Below are positions 56,963 through 61,031 of a DNA stretch of 64,000 bases, piece after piece. A model generated the notes under the pieces. The model was not told the DNA's origin. It searched no databases and worked only from the letters and a program-made list of their open reading frames with translations. Source of the DNA: Tessaracoccus massiliensis (GTDB taxonomy: Bacteria > Actinomycetota > Actinomycetes > Propionibacteriales > Propionibacteriaceae); contig NZ_LN623537.1 in NCBI RefSeq assembly GCF_000826065.2, positions 1 through 64,000 of the forward strand, given 5' to 3'. The position numbers and the translations under genes are program-made. How positions within the stretch are numbered: position 1 is the stretch's first letter; each line of letters opens with the position of its first letter.

Positions 56963-57349
56963 CTACGGCTGGGCGAAGCCGGCGATCAGCAGCACGCACG
57001 CGCCGGCCAGGATGATCGGCGTCACGCCGGCGGCGATGAACATCCCGGCGCCGGTGCGGCGGGATTCCGGGCGCACGGTGAAGAACGTCGCCAGGCCCAG
57101 CCAGATGGTGAACGTCAGATAGGGCAGCCAGCGAAACGGGTTGCCCCAACCGCTCGGCAAGGCGAACGTCAGAACGACCGAGCCGAAGGCGATCGCCGCA
57201 GCGATGGCGATGCCCAGCCAGATCGAGCCGCCCGACGGCGGGGGTGGCGGCGCGTTCTCCGGCGCCCAATGCGGATACCGCGGATAGCCCCCTCCCGGTG
57301 GGGGAGGGCCGTGGCCGCTCCTTCCGGCACGGCGCGCGATTCGCGCCAC
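56963..57349 (-). CDS. Proline-rich, three-helix membrane domain (own gene or C-terminus of the Lgt-like protein)
   Basis: Taken from GTG 57349 it has 128 residues: a short Pro/Gly-rich part (GHGPPPPGGGYPRYPHWAPE) and three hydrophobic segments (SIWLGIAIAAAIAFGSVVLT, WLPYLTFTIWLGLATFF, MFIAAGVTPIILAGACVLLI). There is no good ribosome site. Adding one base to the five-G run at 57300-57304 fuses it to the Lgt-like frame as TALPPPGGGYPRYP, giving one protein of about 374 residues. Which is right cannot be decided from the sequence. Confidence 0.55.
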   Translation of the reverse strand: MARIARRAGRSGHGPPPPGGGYPRYPHWAPENAPPPPPSGGSIWLGIAIAAAIAFGSVVLTFALPSGWGNPFRWLPYLTFTIWLGLATFFTVRPESRRTGAGMFIAAGVTPIILAGACVLLIAGFAQP

Positions 57350-58086
57350 ATGCGCACCATTCTCCACGCCAACAAGGGCAGCGTCAGGAGACAGAACAAC
57401 TGGGGGCCGGACAGCCCGAACGCGAACTCGCGGTTCCCGCGCACGAACTCGACCCCGAAACGGAACAGCGCGTAGGCGCTGACATAGAGGATGAACAGGT
57501 CGCCCGGACGGGGCAGCCGGCCCCGCAGGCGCATCAGCGCGAAGAAGGCGACGACGTGGAACACCGCCTCGTACAGCAGCGACGGGTGGTGCCCACACGA
57601 GGGACATTCGTCGACGTGGCCGCCCACCGCGTCGACGAACCCTGCGGGCATCGTCACGCCCCAGTTGCCGCCGGTGCGCGTGCCCGGGTACTCCGTGAGG
57701 AAGCAGCCGATCCGCGCGATCCCGATGGCCAGGGCCGCGGCGGGCGCGAACAGGTCTCCGGTCTTCCAGCGGTAGCCGGTGATCCACTTGCCGAAGTAGA
57801 CGCCCACCCAGGCGCCGATCATGCCGGAGACGATGCTGCGGTTGCCGCTGAGCCACCACTCCAGCAGCCCTGCCGGTTCGCCCTGGTCGACGCTGGTCAG
57901 CCAGGTGCCGAGCCGCCCGCCGACCGCCCCGAACGCCAGGGTGCAGCCGACGATGGCCCAGAGCCTGTCGTCGCGCAGGTTGAGGCGGCGCTTCTCGGAC
58001 AAGAACACGATCATCGCGGCGATGAGGCCCAGCGCGGTGAACAGCCCATGGACGACATCGTTGTTCGGGTAGGGCAACTCCATCAT
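57169..58086 (-). CDS. Prolipoprotein diacylglyceryl transferase-family (Lgt-like) membrane protein
   Basis: The protein is 305 residues long as it reads, but the last 45 or so lie antisense-free in the frame of another domain and are probably not native. Seven helices are expected. Lgt blocks can be recognised but differ: SGMIGAWVGVYFGKWITGYR, ARIGCFLTEYPGT where true Lgt has GRIGNFINxE, CGHHPSLLYEAVFHVVAF (HPxxLYE) and YALFRFGVEFVRGNRE. The signature Asn is Cys. The start overlaps the stop of the upstream gene (TGATG). I expect a membrane transferase acting on a lipid, not the housekeeping Lgt. The radical SAM gene upstream supports this. Confidence 0.75.
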   Translation of the reverse strand: MMELPYPNNDVVHGLFTALGLIAAMIVFLSEKRRLNLRDDRLWAIVGCTLAFGAVGGRLGTWLTSVDQGEPAGLLEWWLSGNRSIVSGMIGAWVGVYFGKWITGYRWKTGDLFAPAAALAIGIARIGCFLTEYPGTRTGGNWGVTMPAGFVDAVGGHVDECPSCGHHPSLLYEAVFHVVAFFALMRLRGRLPRPGDLFILYVSAYALFRFGVEFVRGNREFAFGLSGPQLFCLLTLPLLAWRMVRMWRESRAVPEGAATALPHREGAIRGIRIGRRRTRRHPRRRAARSGWASPSLRRSPSARSF

Positions 58087-58448
58087 CAGGCGGCACCGAA
58101 GAGCCGCATGCCCCACCACACGGCGCCGGCGACCCCGGCGAGCGTGAGCAGCCCCAGGTAGGCCAGCACGAGGCGGGTGTCGCGCAGGTAGCAGCGGGAC
58201 CGACGCAGCCCGGCCTGGTGCGCCTTCCAGTAGCCCGCGAAGGCGACCCCGGCGAACACCAGCAGTGCGAACGGCCCGAAGATCCAGCCGAGCAGTGCCA
58301 CCGTGGAGAAGATGCACAGCTTCAGCGGGTCGAAGGCTGGCTCCTCCCGGCTGGCCTCGCCGGCGGGGTCCGCGGGGGGAGGGGTGCTCCCGATCATCGA
58401 CGACACCGTGGGCCCGGCGGCGAACTCGCGCGCGCTCTTCTCGCTCAC
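58086..58448 (-). CDS. Small membrane protein of the radical SAM operon
   Basis: The protein has 120 residues from GTG 58448, after GGAGAGGAG, overlapping the radical SAM stop by four bases. After a soluble N-terminus it has two or three helices: LKLCIFSTVALLGWIFGPFA and LVLAYLGLLTLAGVAGAVWW, with a short basic loop. It may help the other two proteins at the membrane. I do not recognise the family. Confidence 0.75.
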   Translation of the reverse strand: MSEKSAREFAAGPTVSSMIGSTPPPADPAGEASREEPAFDPLKLCIFSTVALLGWIFGPFALLVFAGVAFAGYWKAHQAGLRRSRCYLRDTRLVLAYLGLLTLAGVAGAVWWGMRLFGAA

Positions 58449-60034
58449 CGCCGGCTCCTCTCCATCAGCTTCAACGGCTGCGCCTTCTGGGTGAAGCCGA
58501 GCCGCTGCGCGCCCAGTTCTGGCCAGGCCTGCACCGCGCAGAACGGGGCGCACTGGTGGAGGTCTGCGGCCGACTTCGTGCCGACGTGCACGCAGCATTG
58601 CGTGAGCCGCTCCTCCAGCATGGTGTTGATGTCCATGAACGGCTTGACGGTGATCCGCTTGACGCGTTCAGCGAGCAGCCGGCGCATCCTGTCGCCCTGG
58701 CCGGGCAGCCGGCTGGCTGCGAGGGTGGCCATGGTGGAGATGCCCAGGTCGCAGGCGGTGCAGATGTCGCGCCACACCTGGAAGGTCCGCGGGTGGGTCA
58801 GGGAGGTCTGCTCGCTCATCAGGTCCAGCAGGGAGGTCTTCATCAGCTCCCGGAACTGTTCAGGGATCTCCGTGTCGACGAGCCGGTTGGCGATCAGTTC
58901 CGGCTCCAGCTGCAGCCACTCGGCCAACTGGTCGTGGCCCATGATGCTGACCAGCGAGCGCCAGGTGCCGTCGTCGCCCTTGATCATGTAGCCGACGGAG
59001 GCGCAGTGGGGGTGGGAGCACGGCAGGCCGATGAGGTCGTGCCAGTTGACCACGCCGCCGGTCTGTTCGCCCATCCGGGCCAGGGTGCCGCCGTGCGTGA
59101 CGCGGCTGTTCGGGTCGACGCCGGGGTTGCGCCCGGAGCCGAACACGGGCTGGAGTGCCACGCCGCCGACGAAGGGGGTCTCGAGCGCCTTGGTGAGGAC
59201 GGCACCGATGTCTGCGTCGTTGAGGCCCTTGACGATCGTCATCACGAGGGTGACGAAGACGCCCGCGCCTGCGAGTCGTTCGATGGTGCGGTCCTTGCGG
59301 GCGCGCAGGTCCCCGCCGCGCAGCGCGACCCCGGCCTCCTTGGACGGCCCGTCGTACTGCAGGTAGACCTCGGCGCGCTGCCGGTGCTTCTTCAGCACGG
59401 CGAGCAGCGCGTCGTCCTCGGCCAGGACGAGGCCGTTGGTGTTGACCATGATCCGCACGATGGGGCGCGCCACGAGTTCGTCCATGAGTTCGGCGAACTG
59501 CGGGTGGAGGGTGGGCTCGCCGCCGCTGAGCATCAGCACGTCGAGCTTGCCGCCCTCCCTCTCCAGGCGGGTGTCGACGGAGGCGAGGATGTCCTCGACG
59601 CTGGCCACGCCCTTCAGCGCGGGGCCGGAGGCCGTGAAGCAGGTGGGGCACCGCAGGTTGCAGTGCTCGATGACATCCTCCAGCAGGATGCAGGTGTGCT
59701 GCGTCTGCGTGGGCGGCAGGCCGTAGGCGTAGGCCTCGGGGATGGGGCGGAAGTTGGTGGGGTCGTCCGGCACGTGCTGCTTGGTGGGCGCCTGCCAGCG
59801 CTCCAGGTAGCCGACGATGTCCGCGCGCTCGTCGTAGAGCGTGCGCACCAACCCGTGCTCCGGGCAGCCTCGCTGCAGCCACAGTTGGCCGTCCTCGTTG
59901 AGGAGCACTCCCGCCAGCCGCTCGGCGCCGGTCAGCGAGCCGTCGGCCGCGTGGCAATGGGGGCACCAGGCGGTGACGTACTTGTGCACCCGGTCTGTTC
60001 TCGTGGGGCGCCCCGGCCCATAGGCTGTCTGCAT
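58445..60034 (-). CDS. Radical SAM enzyme of the MJ0619 / tetraether lipid synthase (Tes) type
   Basis: The protein has 529 residues. An N-terminal metal-binding part has CPHCHA and CPEHGLVRTLYDER, as in MJ0619-type proteins. The radical SAM core begins ILLEDVIEHCNLRCPTCF with the CxxxCxxC cluster site, then MLSGGEPTLHPQF for SAM binding, VYLQYDG, FVTLVMTIVKGLNDADIG and ALQPVFGSGRNP. The C-terminal part has further Cys, CSHPHCASVGY, ICTACDLG and CCVHVG...CAPFC, likely to hold extra clusters. The archaeal Tes enzyme joins lipid chains at unactivated carbons. Here the partner genes are a membrane protein and an Lgt-like protein. The lipid role is inferred from the family. Confidence 0.82.
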   Translation of the reverse strand: MQTAYGPGRPTRTDRVHKYVTAWCPHCHAADGSLTGAERLAGVLLNEDGQLWLQRGCPEHGLVRTLYDERADIVGYLERWQAPTKQHVPDDPTNFRPIPEAYAYGLPPTQTQHTCILLEDVIEHCNLRCPTCFTASGPALKGVASVEDILASVDTRLEREGGKLDVLMLSGGEPTLHPQFAELMDELVARPIVRIMVNTNGLVLAEDDALLAVLKKHRQRAEVYLQYDGPSKEAGVALRGGDLRARKDRTIERLAGAGVFVTLVMTIVKGLNDADIGAVLTKALETPFVGGVALQPVFGSGRNPGVDPNSRVTHGGTLARMGEQTGGVVNWHDLIGLPCSHPHCASVGYMIKGDDGTWRSLVSIMGHDQLAEWLQLEPELIANRLVDTEIPEQFRELMKTSLLDLMSEQTSLTHPRTFQVWRDICTACDLGISTMATLAASRLPGQGDRMRRLLAERVKRITVKPFMDINTMLEERLTQCCVHVGTKSAADLHQCAPFCAVQAWPELGAQRLGFTQKAQPLKLMERSRR

Positions 60035-60080: not shown

Positions 60081-61031
60081 TCAGAAGCCGAGGCGGCGGG
60101 CGGCCTCCCGGATGTGCTCGGCGGAGTCCTTGAGGCTCTGGAGTTCGTGCTCGTTGACGGGCAGCGCCAGCGCGCGGCCCACGCCACGCCCGTCGACGAC
60201 GCGGGGGACCGACATGCAGACCTCCGAGATGCCGTGCCAGTCGTCGAGCTGCGCCGAGACGGGCAGCACCGTGTGCTCGTCGCGCAGCACAGCCTGGATG
60301 ATGCGGGTGCCGGCCAGGCCGATGGCGTAGTTGGTGGCGCCCTTGCCGTCGATGACCTCGTAGGCGGCGCGCACCACCTGATCGGCGATCCGGTCCCGCG
60401 CCTCCGGGCTCAACTGGCCGGTCTGCTGCTCCCACTTCTTGAGGGGCACCCCGCCGATGGTGGCGGTGCTCCACAGCGGGGTCTCGGTGTCGCCGTGCTC
60501 GCCGGCGATGTAGGCGTGCACGTTACTGACCGCCACCCCGCACTCCTGCGCGACGAGCCAGCGCAGCCGCGACGAGTCGAGCACCGTGCCGGAGCCGAAC
60601 AGCTGGTGTGCGGGCAGCCCAGAGATCTTCAGCGCGGCCTGCGTGGTGACGTCGACGGGGTTGGTCACCATGATGAACACCGCGTCGGGCGACTGCTCCA
60701 CCAGCGGTGGGATGAGCGTCTTCATCATCTCGACGGTTTTCGCAGCCAGGTCCATCCGCGTCTCGCCCGGCTGCTGCTTGGCGCCGGCAGCCACCACCAC
60801 GACGTCGGACTTCGCGGTGACCGCAACGTCGTCGGAGCCCTCCACGGTGACGTGTGGAGGGAGGAACTGGCTGCCGTGTGCCATGTCCAGGGCCTCGGCG
60901 CGTACCTTGGTGGCGTTGATGTCCTGCAATGCCACGTGGGTGGCAGCTCCATTGATCAGGGCCGCGTAGGCCAGGGACGTGCCGACGGCGCCCGCGCCGA
61001 CGACCGAGAGTTTCGTGCCGCGCATCTTCAT
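60081..61031 (-). CDS. ldh: L-lactate dehydrogenase
   Basis: The protein has 316 residues. KLSVVGAGAVGTSLAYAAL binds NAD, and AAGAKQQPGETRMDL carries the substrate loop with the catalytic Arg. TNPVDV, GSGTVLDSSRLRWL and AGEHGDTETPLWS with the catalytic His complete the site. It turns pyruvate to lactate with NADH or, as in propionic fermenters, feeds lactate into pyruvate. A second ATG two codons in is possible. It is a single gene. Confidence 0.93.
   Translation of the reverse strand: MKMRGTKLSVVGAGAVGTSLAYAALINGAATHVALQDINATKVRAEALDMAHGSQFLPPHVTVEGSDDVAVTAKSDVVVVAAGAKQQPGETRMDLAAKTVEMMKTLIPPLVEQSPDAVFIMVTNPVDVTTQAALKISGLPAHQLFGSGTVLDSSRLRWLVAQECGVAVSNVHAYIAGEHGDTETPLWSTATIGGVPLKKWEQQTGQLSPEARDRIADQVVRAAYEVIDGKGATNYAIGLAGTRIIQAVLRDEHTVLPVSAQLDDWHGISEVCMSVPRVVDGRGVGRALALPVNEHELQSLKDSAEHIREAARRLGF

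What the first reader, a model, noticed from the sequence alone, without database searches (positions are those of the whole stretch)
56963..60034. Tes-type radical SAM enzyme in an operon with an Lgt-like transferase
The radical SAM protein has the cluster layout of MJ0619/Tes, the archaeal enzyme that joins lipid chains, and is encoded with four-base overlaps with two membrane proteins, one a diverged Lgt in which the signature Asn is Cys. Lgt takes a diacylglyceryl group from phosphatidylglycerol. The pair suggests radical modification of a membrane lipid or a lipid head group in an actinobacterium, not known to me as a described pathway.
Basis: partly seen in the sequence, partly recalled or inferred. 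Interest (0 to 1): 0.8.

Follow-up and report, generated by a model that had tools for sequence, protein, structure and literature searches.

The report
Tes-like radical enzyme paired with Lgt-like transferase
A small gene cassette shared by soil actinobacteria, some mycobacteria and a second bacterial phylum pairs a radical enzyme related to the archaeal lipid-tail coupler with an altered lipoprotein lipid transferase, and so probably makes or remodels an unknown membrane lipid.

Summary
The operon is real. The radical SAM protein (58445-60034, -) is nearest among solved structures to the tetraether lipid synthase Tes, but falls far under the NCBIfam cut-offs for Tes (145 of 450 bits) and TrsS (196 of 490) and forms its own long-stemmed clade. 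It keeps the radical cluster, the rubredoxin-like site and the C-terminal cluster cysteines (in Tes that cluster holds the lipid radical), but Tes's N-terminal cluster motif is absent in 64 of 64 rows. The Lgt-like protein keeps residues that hold phosphatidylglycerol in Lgt, yet lacks catalytic His103 and has Cys for Asn146 in 67 of 67 rows; a genuine Lgt lies elsewhere. The two genes go together: 66 of 68 named loci (two are cut by contig ends) and the same 10 of 396 actinobacterial genomes. A second, more Tes-like lineage has such a neighbour in 2 of 3 genomes. Most likely this is an undescribed membrane-lipid pathway: radical chemistry on a lipid plus transfer from phosphatidylglycerol to a non-lipoprotein acceptor. 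Substrate and product are inferred, not shown.

The parts
58445..60034 (-). Tes/TrsS-superfamily radical SAM protein, 529 aa: C24xxC27..C57xxH60 (rubredoxin-like site), C125xxxC129xxC132 (radical SAM cluster), C344/C480/C481/C499 (C-terminal cluster region), C339 (shared with 11 of 12 distant homologues, not with Tes), and family-specific C425xxC428 and C495
   Evidence: Pfam Radical_SAM 1.1e-19 and Zn_ribbon_HMPTM 2.7e-10; NCBIfam TrsS 195.9 bits, Tes 145.3 bits; PDB Tes 6.9e-32; conservation in 64 rows
58086..58448 (-). small membrane protein, 120 aa, two hydrophobic stretches (42-75, 92-114), two invariant Cys (C45, C86); 4-base overlap with the radical SAM gene
   Evidence: found in 49 of 68 named loci and in the 6 window-type loci of the second phylum; C45 and C86 in 50 of 50 rows
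57169..58086 (-). Lgt-like membrane protein (ORF 305 aa; roughly the last 50 residues lie beyond the part shared with relatives and overlap the next ORF); His103 is Val86, Asn146 is Cys128; PG-site residues R125, S169, E173, Y205, R209, E213, R216 kept
   Evidence: PF01790 2.1e-28; residue mapping to E. coli Lgt; genuine Lgt elsewhere in the genome at 273.4 bits
56963..57367 (-). fourth ORF: Pro-rich N-terminus then hydrophobic stretches; start uncertain (candidate start codons at 57367, 57349 and others)
   Evidence: tblastn matches in 8 of 9 same-family relatives (10 regions searched), E 2.7e-8 to 8.2e-5, and in 13 of 68 named loci; no Pfam family at E 1; candidate starts

Best explanation
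The cassette encodes an undescribed membrane-lipid pathway. The radical SAM enzyme binds a lipid and abstracts hydrogen from it, as Tes does, holding the radical on its C-terminal cluster; the outcome could be C-C coupling of tails or another C-H functionalisation. The Lgt-like protein binds phosphatidylglycerol with the Lgt residues and transfers its diacylglyceryl (or glycerophosphate) part to an acceptor other than a lipobox cysteine, because the residues that serve the lipoprotein reaction in Lgt (His103, Asn146) are gone. The small protein probably holds the two together at the membrane. Shown: the genes, their residues, their pairing and kinship. Inferred: substrate, cellular place, reaction order, product.
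For: Tes is the only PDB sequence found at E 0.001 (6.9e-32) and its two chains head the fold search (1.1e-17 and 1.5e-17; next 4.8e-06, low-confidence model). SAM- and 5'-dAH-contacting residues of Tes (F106, G145, Y195, D199, R210, Q268, R275) and the C-terminal cluster cysteines are kept in 63-64 of 64 rows; in Tes that cluster carries the S-C lipid intermediate (PMC9433317, sections 5, 7 and 8 read). Lgt residues R143, E202, Y235, R239, E243 kept in 67 of 67 rows, R246 in 66 of 67; these are in the PG site (PMC8689077 and PMC4728403, passages read). Pairing: 66 of 68 named loci, same strand in all 66, within 1.3 kb in 65 and 3.1 kb in one; same 10 of 396 genomes; all 6 window-type loci found in a second phylum; distance matrices r = 0.93, 0 of 2000 permutations as high, 62 rows. 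The adjacency also occurs in a separate radical SAM lineage (G677 and G774).
Against: The N-terminal cluster motif of Tes is absent (0 of 64) and Met439 and Tyr459, invariant in archaea, are Lys and Val in 63 of 64; variants at those two positions stayed active in Tes. Of the SAM contacts, S271 is Phe and T273 is Ser. The best NCBIfam model is TrsS, of a role unknown to me. No further gene was shared by most of the 12 loci printed (24 compared), so no lipid gene supports the reading from outside the cassette. The Lgt-like AlphaFold model matched no Lgt structure (mean pLDDT 66). One relative of the second lineage (G646) has no Lgt-like gene in the 14 kb fetched. 14 loci of distant homologues in the phylum have none either.
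Confidence: 0.55

Rival explanations
1. Self-contained protein lipidation: the Lgt-like enzyme attaches diacylglyceryl to a dedicated thiol such as invariant Cys45 of the small membrane protein, and the radical SAM enzyme then modifies the attached lipid or the protein.
For: C45 and C86 in 50 of 50 rows; C45 near the start of the first hydrophobic stretch, 42-75; the charged loop after it would put C45 on the outer side, where Lgt works (inference).
Against: C45 is not in a lipobox-like setting (my reading of the sequence); 15 mycobacterial loci hold the other two genes but no small protein that the profile finds; the Lgt-like protein lacks His103.
Confidence: 0.15
2. Not a lipid enzyme: the radical SAM protein shares the (to me unknown) role of TrsS, and the Lgt-like protein is a membrane anchor or has a different transferase role.
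For: TrsS model scores higher than Tes (195.9 against 145.3 bits); long stem and changed cluster ligands.
Against: Under the TrsS cut-off of 490 bits; no in-frame TGA in the gene; PG-site residues of the partner kept in 66-67 of 67 rows.
Confidence: 0.17
3. An ordinary bacterial membrane-spanning lipid synthase (Mss/Tes function) that happens to sit with a head-group enzyme.
For: Tes superfamily; Mss is reported to couple fatty-acyl tails (PMC13274423 and PMC11868695, passages read).
Against: The 8 distant homologues scanned score 189.5-331.7 bits to the Tes model, more than the window protein, and 14 loci of such homologues have no Lgt-like neighbour in the stretches fetched; the window clade is separate on a long stem.
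Confidence: 0.08
4. The Lgt-like gene is a second ordinary prolipoprotein diacylglyceryl transferase.
For: Over the PF01790 cut-off.
Against: His103 lost and Asn146 replaced by Cys in 67 of 67 rows; mutants at each inactivate E. coli Lgt; 60 bits against 118.9 for TIGR00544; a genuine Lgt exists in the genome.
Confidence: 0.03

Closest known systems
Tetraether lipid synthase Tes / GDGT-MAS (MJ0619; PDB 7TOL, 7TOM)
   Same: radical SAM core, rubredoxin-like CxxC..CxxH site, cysteines of the C-terminal cluster region, most SAM-contacting residues; best fold match
   Different: no N-terminal [4Fe-4S] cluster motif; Met439 is Lys, Tyr459 is Val; further invariant cysteines C339, C425xxC428, C495; 145 bits against a cut-off of 450; constant Lgt-like partner
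Radical SAM (seleno)protein TrsS, NCBIfam NF045646
   Same: best-scoring curated model (195.9 bits)
   Different: far below the 490-bit cut-off; no in-frame TGA; role of TrsS not established here (paper not held)
Prolipoprotein diacylglyceryl transferase Lgt (PF01790; PDB 5AZB, 5AZC)
   Same: family match and PG-pocket residues R143, S198, E202, Y235, R239, E243, R246 in the window protein
   Different: His103 is Leu/Val/Ile, Asn146 is Cys; a genuine Lgt is encoded elsewhere in the genome
Lgt paralogs with a GRLGCFxNGCC motif (loci L169-L172, L174, L176-L180)
   Same: Asn146 is Cys and PG-site arginines kept in these 10
   Different: Tyr at His103, Cys-rich motif; of their genomes only G506 has a radical SAM match at 1e-20, on another contig
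Bacterial membrane-spanning lipid synthase Mss
   Same: said to keep the catalytic architecture of Tes (PMC13274423, passages read)
   Different: not compared: no Mss sequence was obtained

Membership tests
Tes / GDGT-MAS | score over the curated NCBIfam cut-off (450 bits) | tested here: not met
   145.3 bits
Tes / GDGT-MAS | CX3CX2C radical SAM cluster and SAM-contacting residues | tested here: met
   cluster cysteines 64 of 64; F106, G145, Y195, D199, R210 64 of 64; Q268 and R275 63 of 64; but S271 is Phe and T273 is Ser in 63 of 64
Tes / GDGT-MAS | rubredoxin-type C9xxC12..C33xxH36 site | tested here: met
   C24, C27, C57, H60 in 64 of 64
Tes / GDGT-MAS | N-terminal [4Fe-4S] cluster, C73, C77, C80 | tested here: not met
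   0 of 64; present in 11-12 of 12 distant bacterial homologues
Tes / GDGT-MAS | C-terminal auxiliary cluster cysteines (C338, C455/C456, C470 by alignment; the exact ligand set was not in the text that I read) | tested here: met
   63 of 64 at each position
Tes / GDGT-MAS | Met439 and Tyr459, invariant in 1000 archaeal homologues | tested here: not met
   Lys 63 of 64, Val 63 of 64
Tes / GDGT-MAS | couples lipid tails | not testable with these tools
   needs an enzyme assay or lipid analysis
TrsS (NF045646) | score over the curated cut-off (490 bits) | tested here: not met
   195.9 bits
TrsS (NF045646) | selenocysteine codon (the model's name says (seleno)protein, so not in every member) | tested here: not met
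   no in-frame TGA before the stop
Lgt | PF01790 gathering score | tested here: met
   99.7 against 24.9 bits
Lgt | equivalog score TIGR00544 (118.9 bits) | tested here: not met
   60 bits
Lgt | catalytic His103 and essential Asn146 | tested here: not met
   Leu/Val/Ile and Cys in 67 of 67 rows
Lgt | PG-binding residues R143, Y235, R239 | tested here: met
   67 of 67 rows each
Lgt | Lgt fold by structure comparison | tested here: inconclusive
   model from 8 rows, mean pLDDT 66, no match at E 0.001 or better
Mss | sequence clade with proven Mss enzymes | not tested
   no Mss sequence was obtained

The most novel reading that the evidence does not exclude
The two enzymes build a new class of lipid by joining their two chemistries: the radical SAM enzyme fixes sulfur on a lipid chain (Tes already forms an S-C bond to its C-terminal cluster as an intermediate), and the Lgt-like enzyme alkylates that thiol with the diacylglyceryl group of phosphatidylglycerol, giving a thioether-linked, possibly membrane-spanning lipid in actinobacteria.
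Probability: 0.06. Interest if true: 0.92.

Novelty: new variant of a known kind. Interest (0 to 1): 0.66.

Why it matters
The authors of the Tes structure leave the reactions and roles of bacterial Tes homologues open (PMC9433317, passages read). Here such a relative comes with a constant membrane partner whose lipid donor can be guessed, in named soil strains and mycobacteria. That makes a possible new lipid-modifying pathway directly testable by a gene deletion and lipid mass spectrometry, and it would give a role to an Lgt paralog without the catalytic histidine; I know of none with a described role (recalled, not searched).

Tried and rejected
Two AlphaFold jobs were run on alignments of only 9 and 8 rows: mean pLDDT 52.3 and 66.3. 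The first still ranks Tes first; the second gave no match at E 0.001 or better.

A RiPP reading was considered and thought less likely: no further ORF was shared by most of the 12 loci printed (24 of the 68 compared), but that survey took open frames of 60 codons or more only, so a short precursor peptide is not excluded. A second ordinary Lgt was rejected on His103, Asn146 and the genuine Lgt elsewhere. An 'empty site' was sought in congeners: of 11 ldh loci examined (1.5 kb flanks), only L183 (G693) showed ldh, a homologue of the 61167 gene and pntA together, without the cassette, but in another order than the window, so no clean empty site was shown. Literature: the nine searches listed no paper that seemed to describe the pair (listings seen; passages of one of the four papers read, unrelated); only open-licence PMC papers are covered, and the TrsS paper (PMC12013261) is not held.
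Full report
What is there. On the minus strand between pntB (ends 56961, +) and an L-lactate dehydrogenase gene (60081-61031, -) lie four ORFs: a radical SAM protein (60034-58445), a small membrane protein with two hydrophobic stretches (58448-58086), an Lgt-like protein (from 58086) and a small Pro-rich hydrophobic protein ending at 56963. The radical SAM and small-protein genes share GTGA (4 bases); the small-protein stop and the Lgt-like start share one base. The names of the flanking genes are my recognition of their sequences, from no call. In same-family relatives the genes are likewise packed, with 4-base overlaps at several junctions.

The radical SAM protein. Pfam gives Radical_SAM (1.1e-19) and the HMPTM N-terminal zinc ribbon (2.7e-10). 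The two best NCBIfam models are TrsS (195.9 bits, cut-off 490) and Tes (145.3 bits, cut-off 450), so it is a curated member of neither. Tes is the only PDB sequence match at E 0.001, and Tes chains head the fold search at 1.1e-17 and 1.5e-17, the next being 4.8e-06, on a model of low confidence (mean pLDDT 52). I aligned the window protein and 63 relatives from named loci (those over 480 aa of the 68) with 12 distant actinobacterial homologues and residues 26-507 of M. jannaschii Tes. Numbering of Tes is that of PMC9433317 (chain number minus 20, my offset). Kept: the rubredoxin-type site (64 of 64), the radical SAM cluster (64 of 64), most SAM contacts, and the cysteines of the C-terminal cluster region (63 of 64). 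Lost: C73, C77 and C80, the ligands of Tes's N-terminal cluster (0 of 64, but 11-12 of 12 in the distant set). Changed: Met439 to Lys, Tyr459 to Val, S271 to Phe, T273 to Ser (63 of 64 each). New, and in 63 of 64: C425xxC428 and C495. C339 is equally conserved (63 of 64) and is shared with 11 of 12 distant homologues, though not with Tes. PMC9433317 (abstract, sections 5, 7 and 8, part 1 of section 29, and passages) reports that the C-terminal cluster carries the S-C bonded lipid intermediate, that the N-terminal cluster and rubredoxin domains lie on the surface, and that Met439 and Tyr459 variants stay active. So the part of Tes that does the chemistry is the part kept here. PMC8941075 (passages) names two CxxxCxxC motifs as a mark of Tes; the window family has one.

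Kinship. In a quick maximum-likelihood tree of 44 rows (21 of the family, 22 distant, Tes) the family is one side of a branch (SH-aLRT 100) with a stem of 2.65 changes per column; the program warns of long branches. The 8 distant homologues that I scanned score 189.5-331.7 bits to the Tes model, more than the window protein, and all 8 are under its cut-off too.

The Lgt-like protein. PF01790 99.7 bits; TIGR00544 60 bits, under its 118.9 cut-off. The genome has a genuine Lgt (273.4 bits) on another contig. Mapped to E. coli Lgt in 67 rows (window and 66 named loci): R143, E202, Y235, R239, E243 and G154 kept in 67; R246 in 66; S198 is Ser in 63 and Thr in 4; His103 is Leu, Val or Ile in 67; Asn146 is Cys in 67. 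E151 fell one column off in that alignment; it aligns with the invariant Glu132. PMC8689077 and PMC4728403 (passages) say that His103 is the proposed base for the lipobox thiol and that its mutants are inactive, that Asn146Ala is inactive, and that R143, N146, S198, E202, Y235, R239 and R246 accommodate the PG head group. So most of a PG-binding pocket, without two residues of the lipoprotein reaction, is what the sequence shows; that it still binds PG is inference.

The pair goes together. The genome-contig scan gave 68 loci: Arthrobacter, Pseudarthrobacter, Sinomonas, Mycolicibacterium/Mycobacterium, Micropruina, Propionicimonas, Propioniciclava, Kineosporia, Amorphoplanes, Phycicoccus, Amnibacterium, unclassified actinobacteria, and one Gemmatimonadaceae bin. 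The Lgt-like gene lies on the same strand as the radical SAM gene in 66 of 68; in the other two (L071, L084) the contig begins 317 and 114 bases before the radical SAM match. The space between the two genes is at most 1.25 kb in 65 and 3.1 kb in one (L102); it is under 500 bases in 43. In 65 the Lgt-like gene lies upstream; in one (L055), as in the window, downstream, so the order has been permuted. The small protein was found by profile in 49 of 68; of the 19 without it, 15 are mycobacterial, 3 end with the contig inside the radical SAM gene (L116, L118, L122) and one (L121) matches only the start of that gene. In 396 genomes drawn from the phylum, the radical SAM family proper (best piece 415.6 bits or more; next best genome 224) and the Lgt-like family (206.7 bits or more; next best 114.2) occur in the same 10 genomes; only the top few candidates per genome were scored, so misses are possible. 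Protein distances of the two families correlate at r = 0.93 over 62 rows (window included), 0 of 2000 permutations as high. Outside the cassette no gene was shared by most of the 12 loci printed of 24 compared (open frames of 60 codons or more). In the window's own family 10 of 147 genomes hold a full-length match (one of them split over two contigs), and 1 of the 14 same-genus genomes listed does; the other 35 genomes with a hit match only in part and weakly. That is patchy, as for a cassette gained and lost.

A second phylum and a second lineage. In 298 genomes of the phylum of G542 (the genome of the Gemmatimonadaceae locus L108; the phylum's name rests on that record title), at least six hold the window-type radical SAM gene, and all six found have the Lgt-like and small genes beside it; an earlier draw of 150 showed two. 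Three others hold a different, more Tes-like lineage that keeps the CPxxCGxC motif (G677, G774, G646); G677 and G774 have an Lgt-like gene with GRxGC directly upstream, with Leu at His103 in G677 and, read by eye, Val in G774. G646 has none in the 14 kb fetched. A fifth Lgt-like hit (G581) has the GCFLAGCC motif and no radical SAM match at 1e-40. The 14 loci of distant actinobacterial homologues have no such neighbour in the stretches fetched, several of them short contigs. Thus the association is seen with two radical SAM lineages, which argues for a joint function.

How it most likely works. Shown: the genes, their residues, the pairing. From established knowledge: Tes draws hydrogen from lipid tails; Lgt takes diacylglyceryl from PG. 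Inferred: the enzyme pair modifies a membrane lipid, the Lgt-like protein using PG as donor and a non-lipobox acceptor. I put 0.55 on this. The boldest version, sulfur placed on a lipid by the radical enzyme and alkylated by the Lgt-like one, is not excluded but rests on analogy alone.

Limits. No protein-database search could be made. No Mss sequence was compared. No lipid data exist here. That the pair is not in print is stated only for the nine literature searches named under Tried and rejected, in an open-licence library.

Noticed in passing
L169-L172, L174, L176-L180: Ten Lgt paralogs with a GRLGCFxNGCC motif, Cys at Asn146 and Tyr at His103, all in one actinobacterial family (f26), apart from the radical SAM cassette; role unknown to me.
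   Followed up: partly
L157 6136-8388; L194: Second pairing of an Lgt-like gene (GRxGC) with a more Tes-like radical SAM gene that keeps the N-terminal cluster motif, in two genomes of the phylum of G542.
   Followed up: yes
L139 1981-5373: Two divergent Tes/TrsS-superfamily radical SAM genes in tandem in genome G506.
   Followed up: no
L114 (Mycolicibacterium septicum), L121 (Arthrobacter sp. UNC362MFTsu5.1): L114: the radical SAM gene matches in two frames; L121: a match to the first part only, on another contig than the full copy L070 of the same strain.
   Followed up: no
L183 983-2442: In congener G693 ldh is followed by homologues of the 61167-61808 gene and of pntA with no cassette, in an order unlike that of the window.
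   Followed up: partly
L173 1435-2280: An Lgt paralog (G240) read with one in-frame TGA.
   Followed up: no
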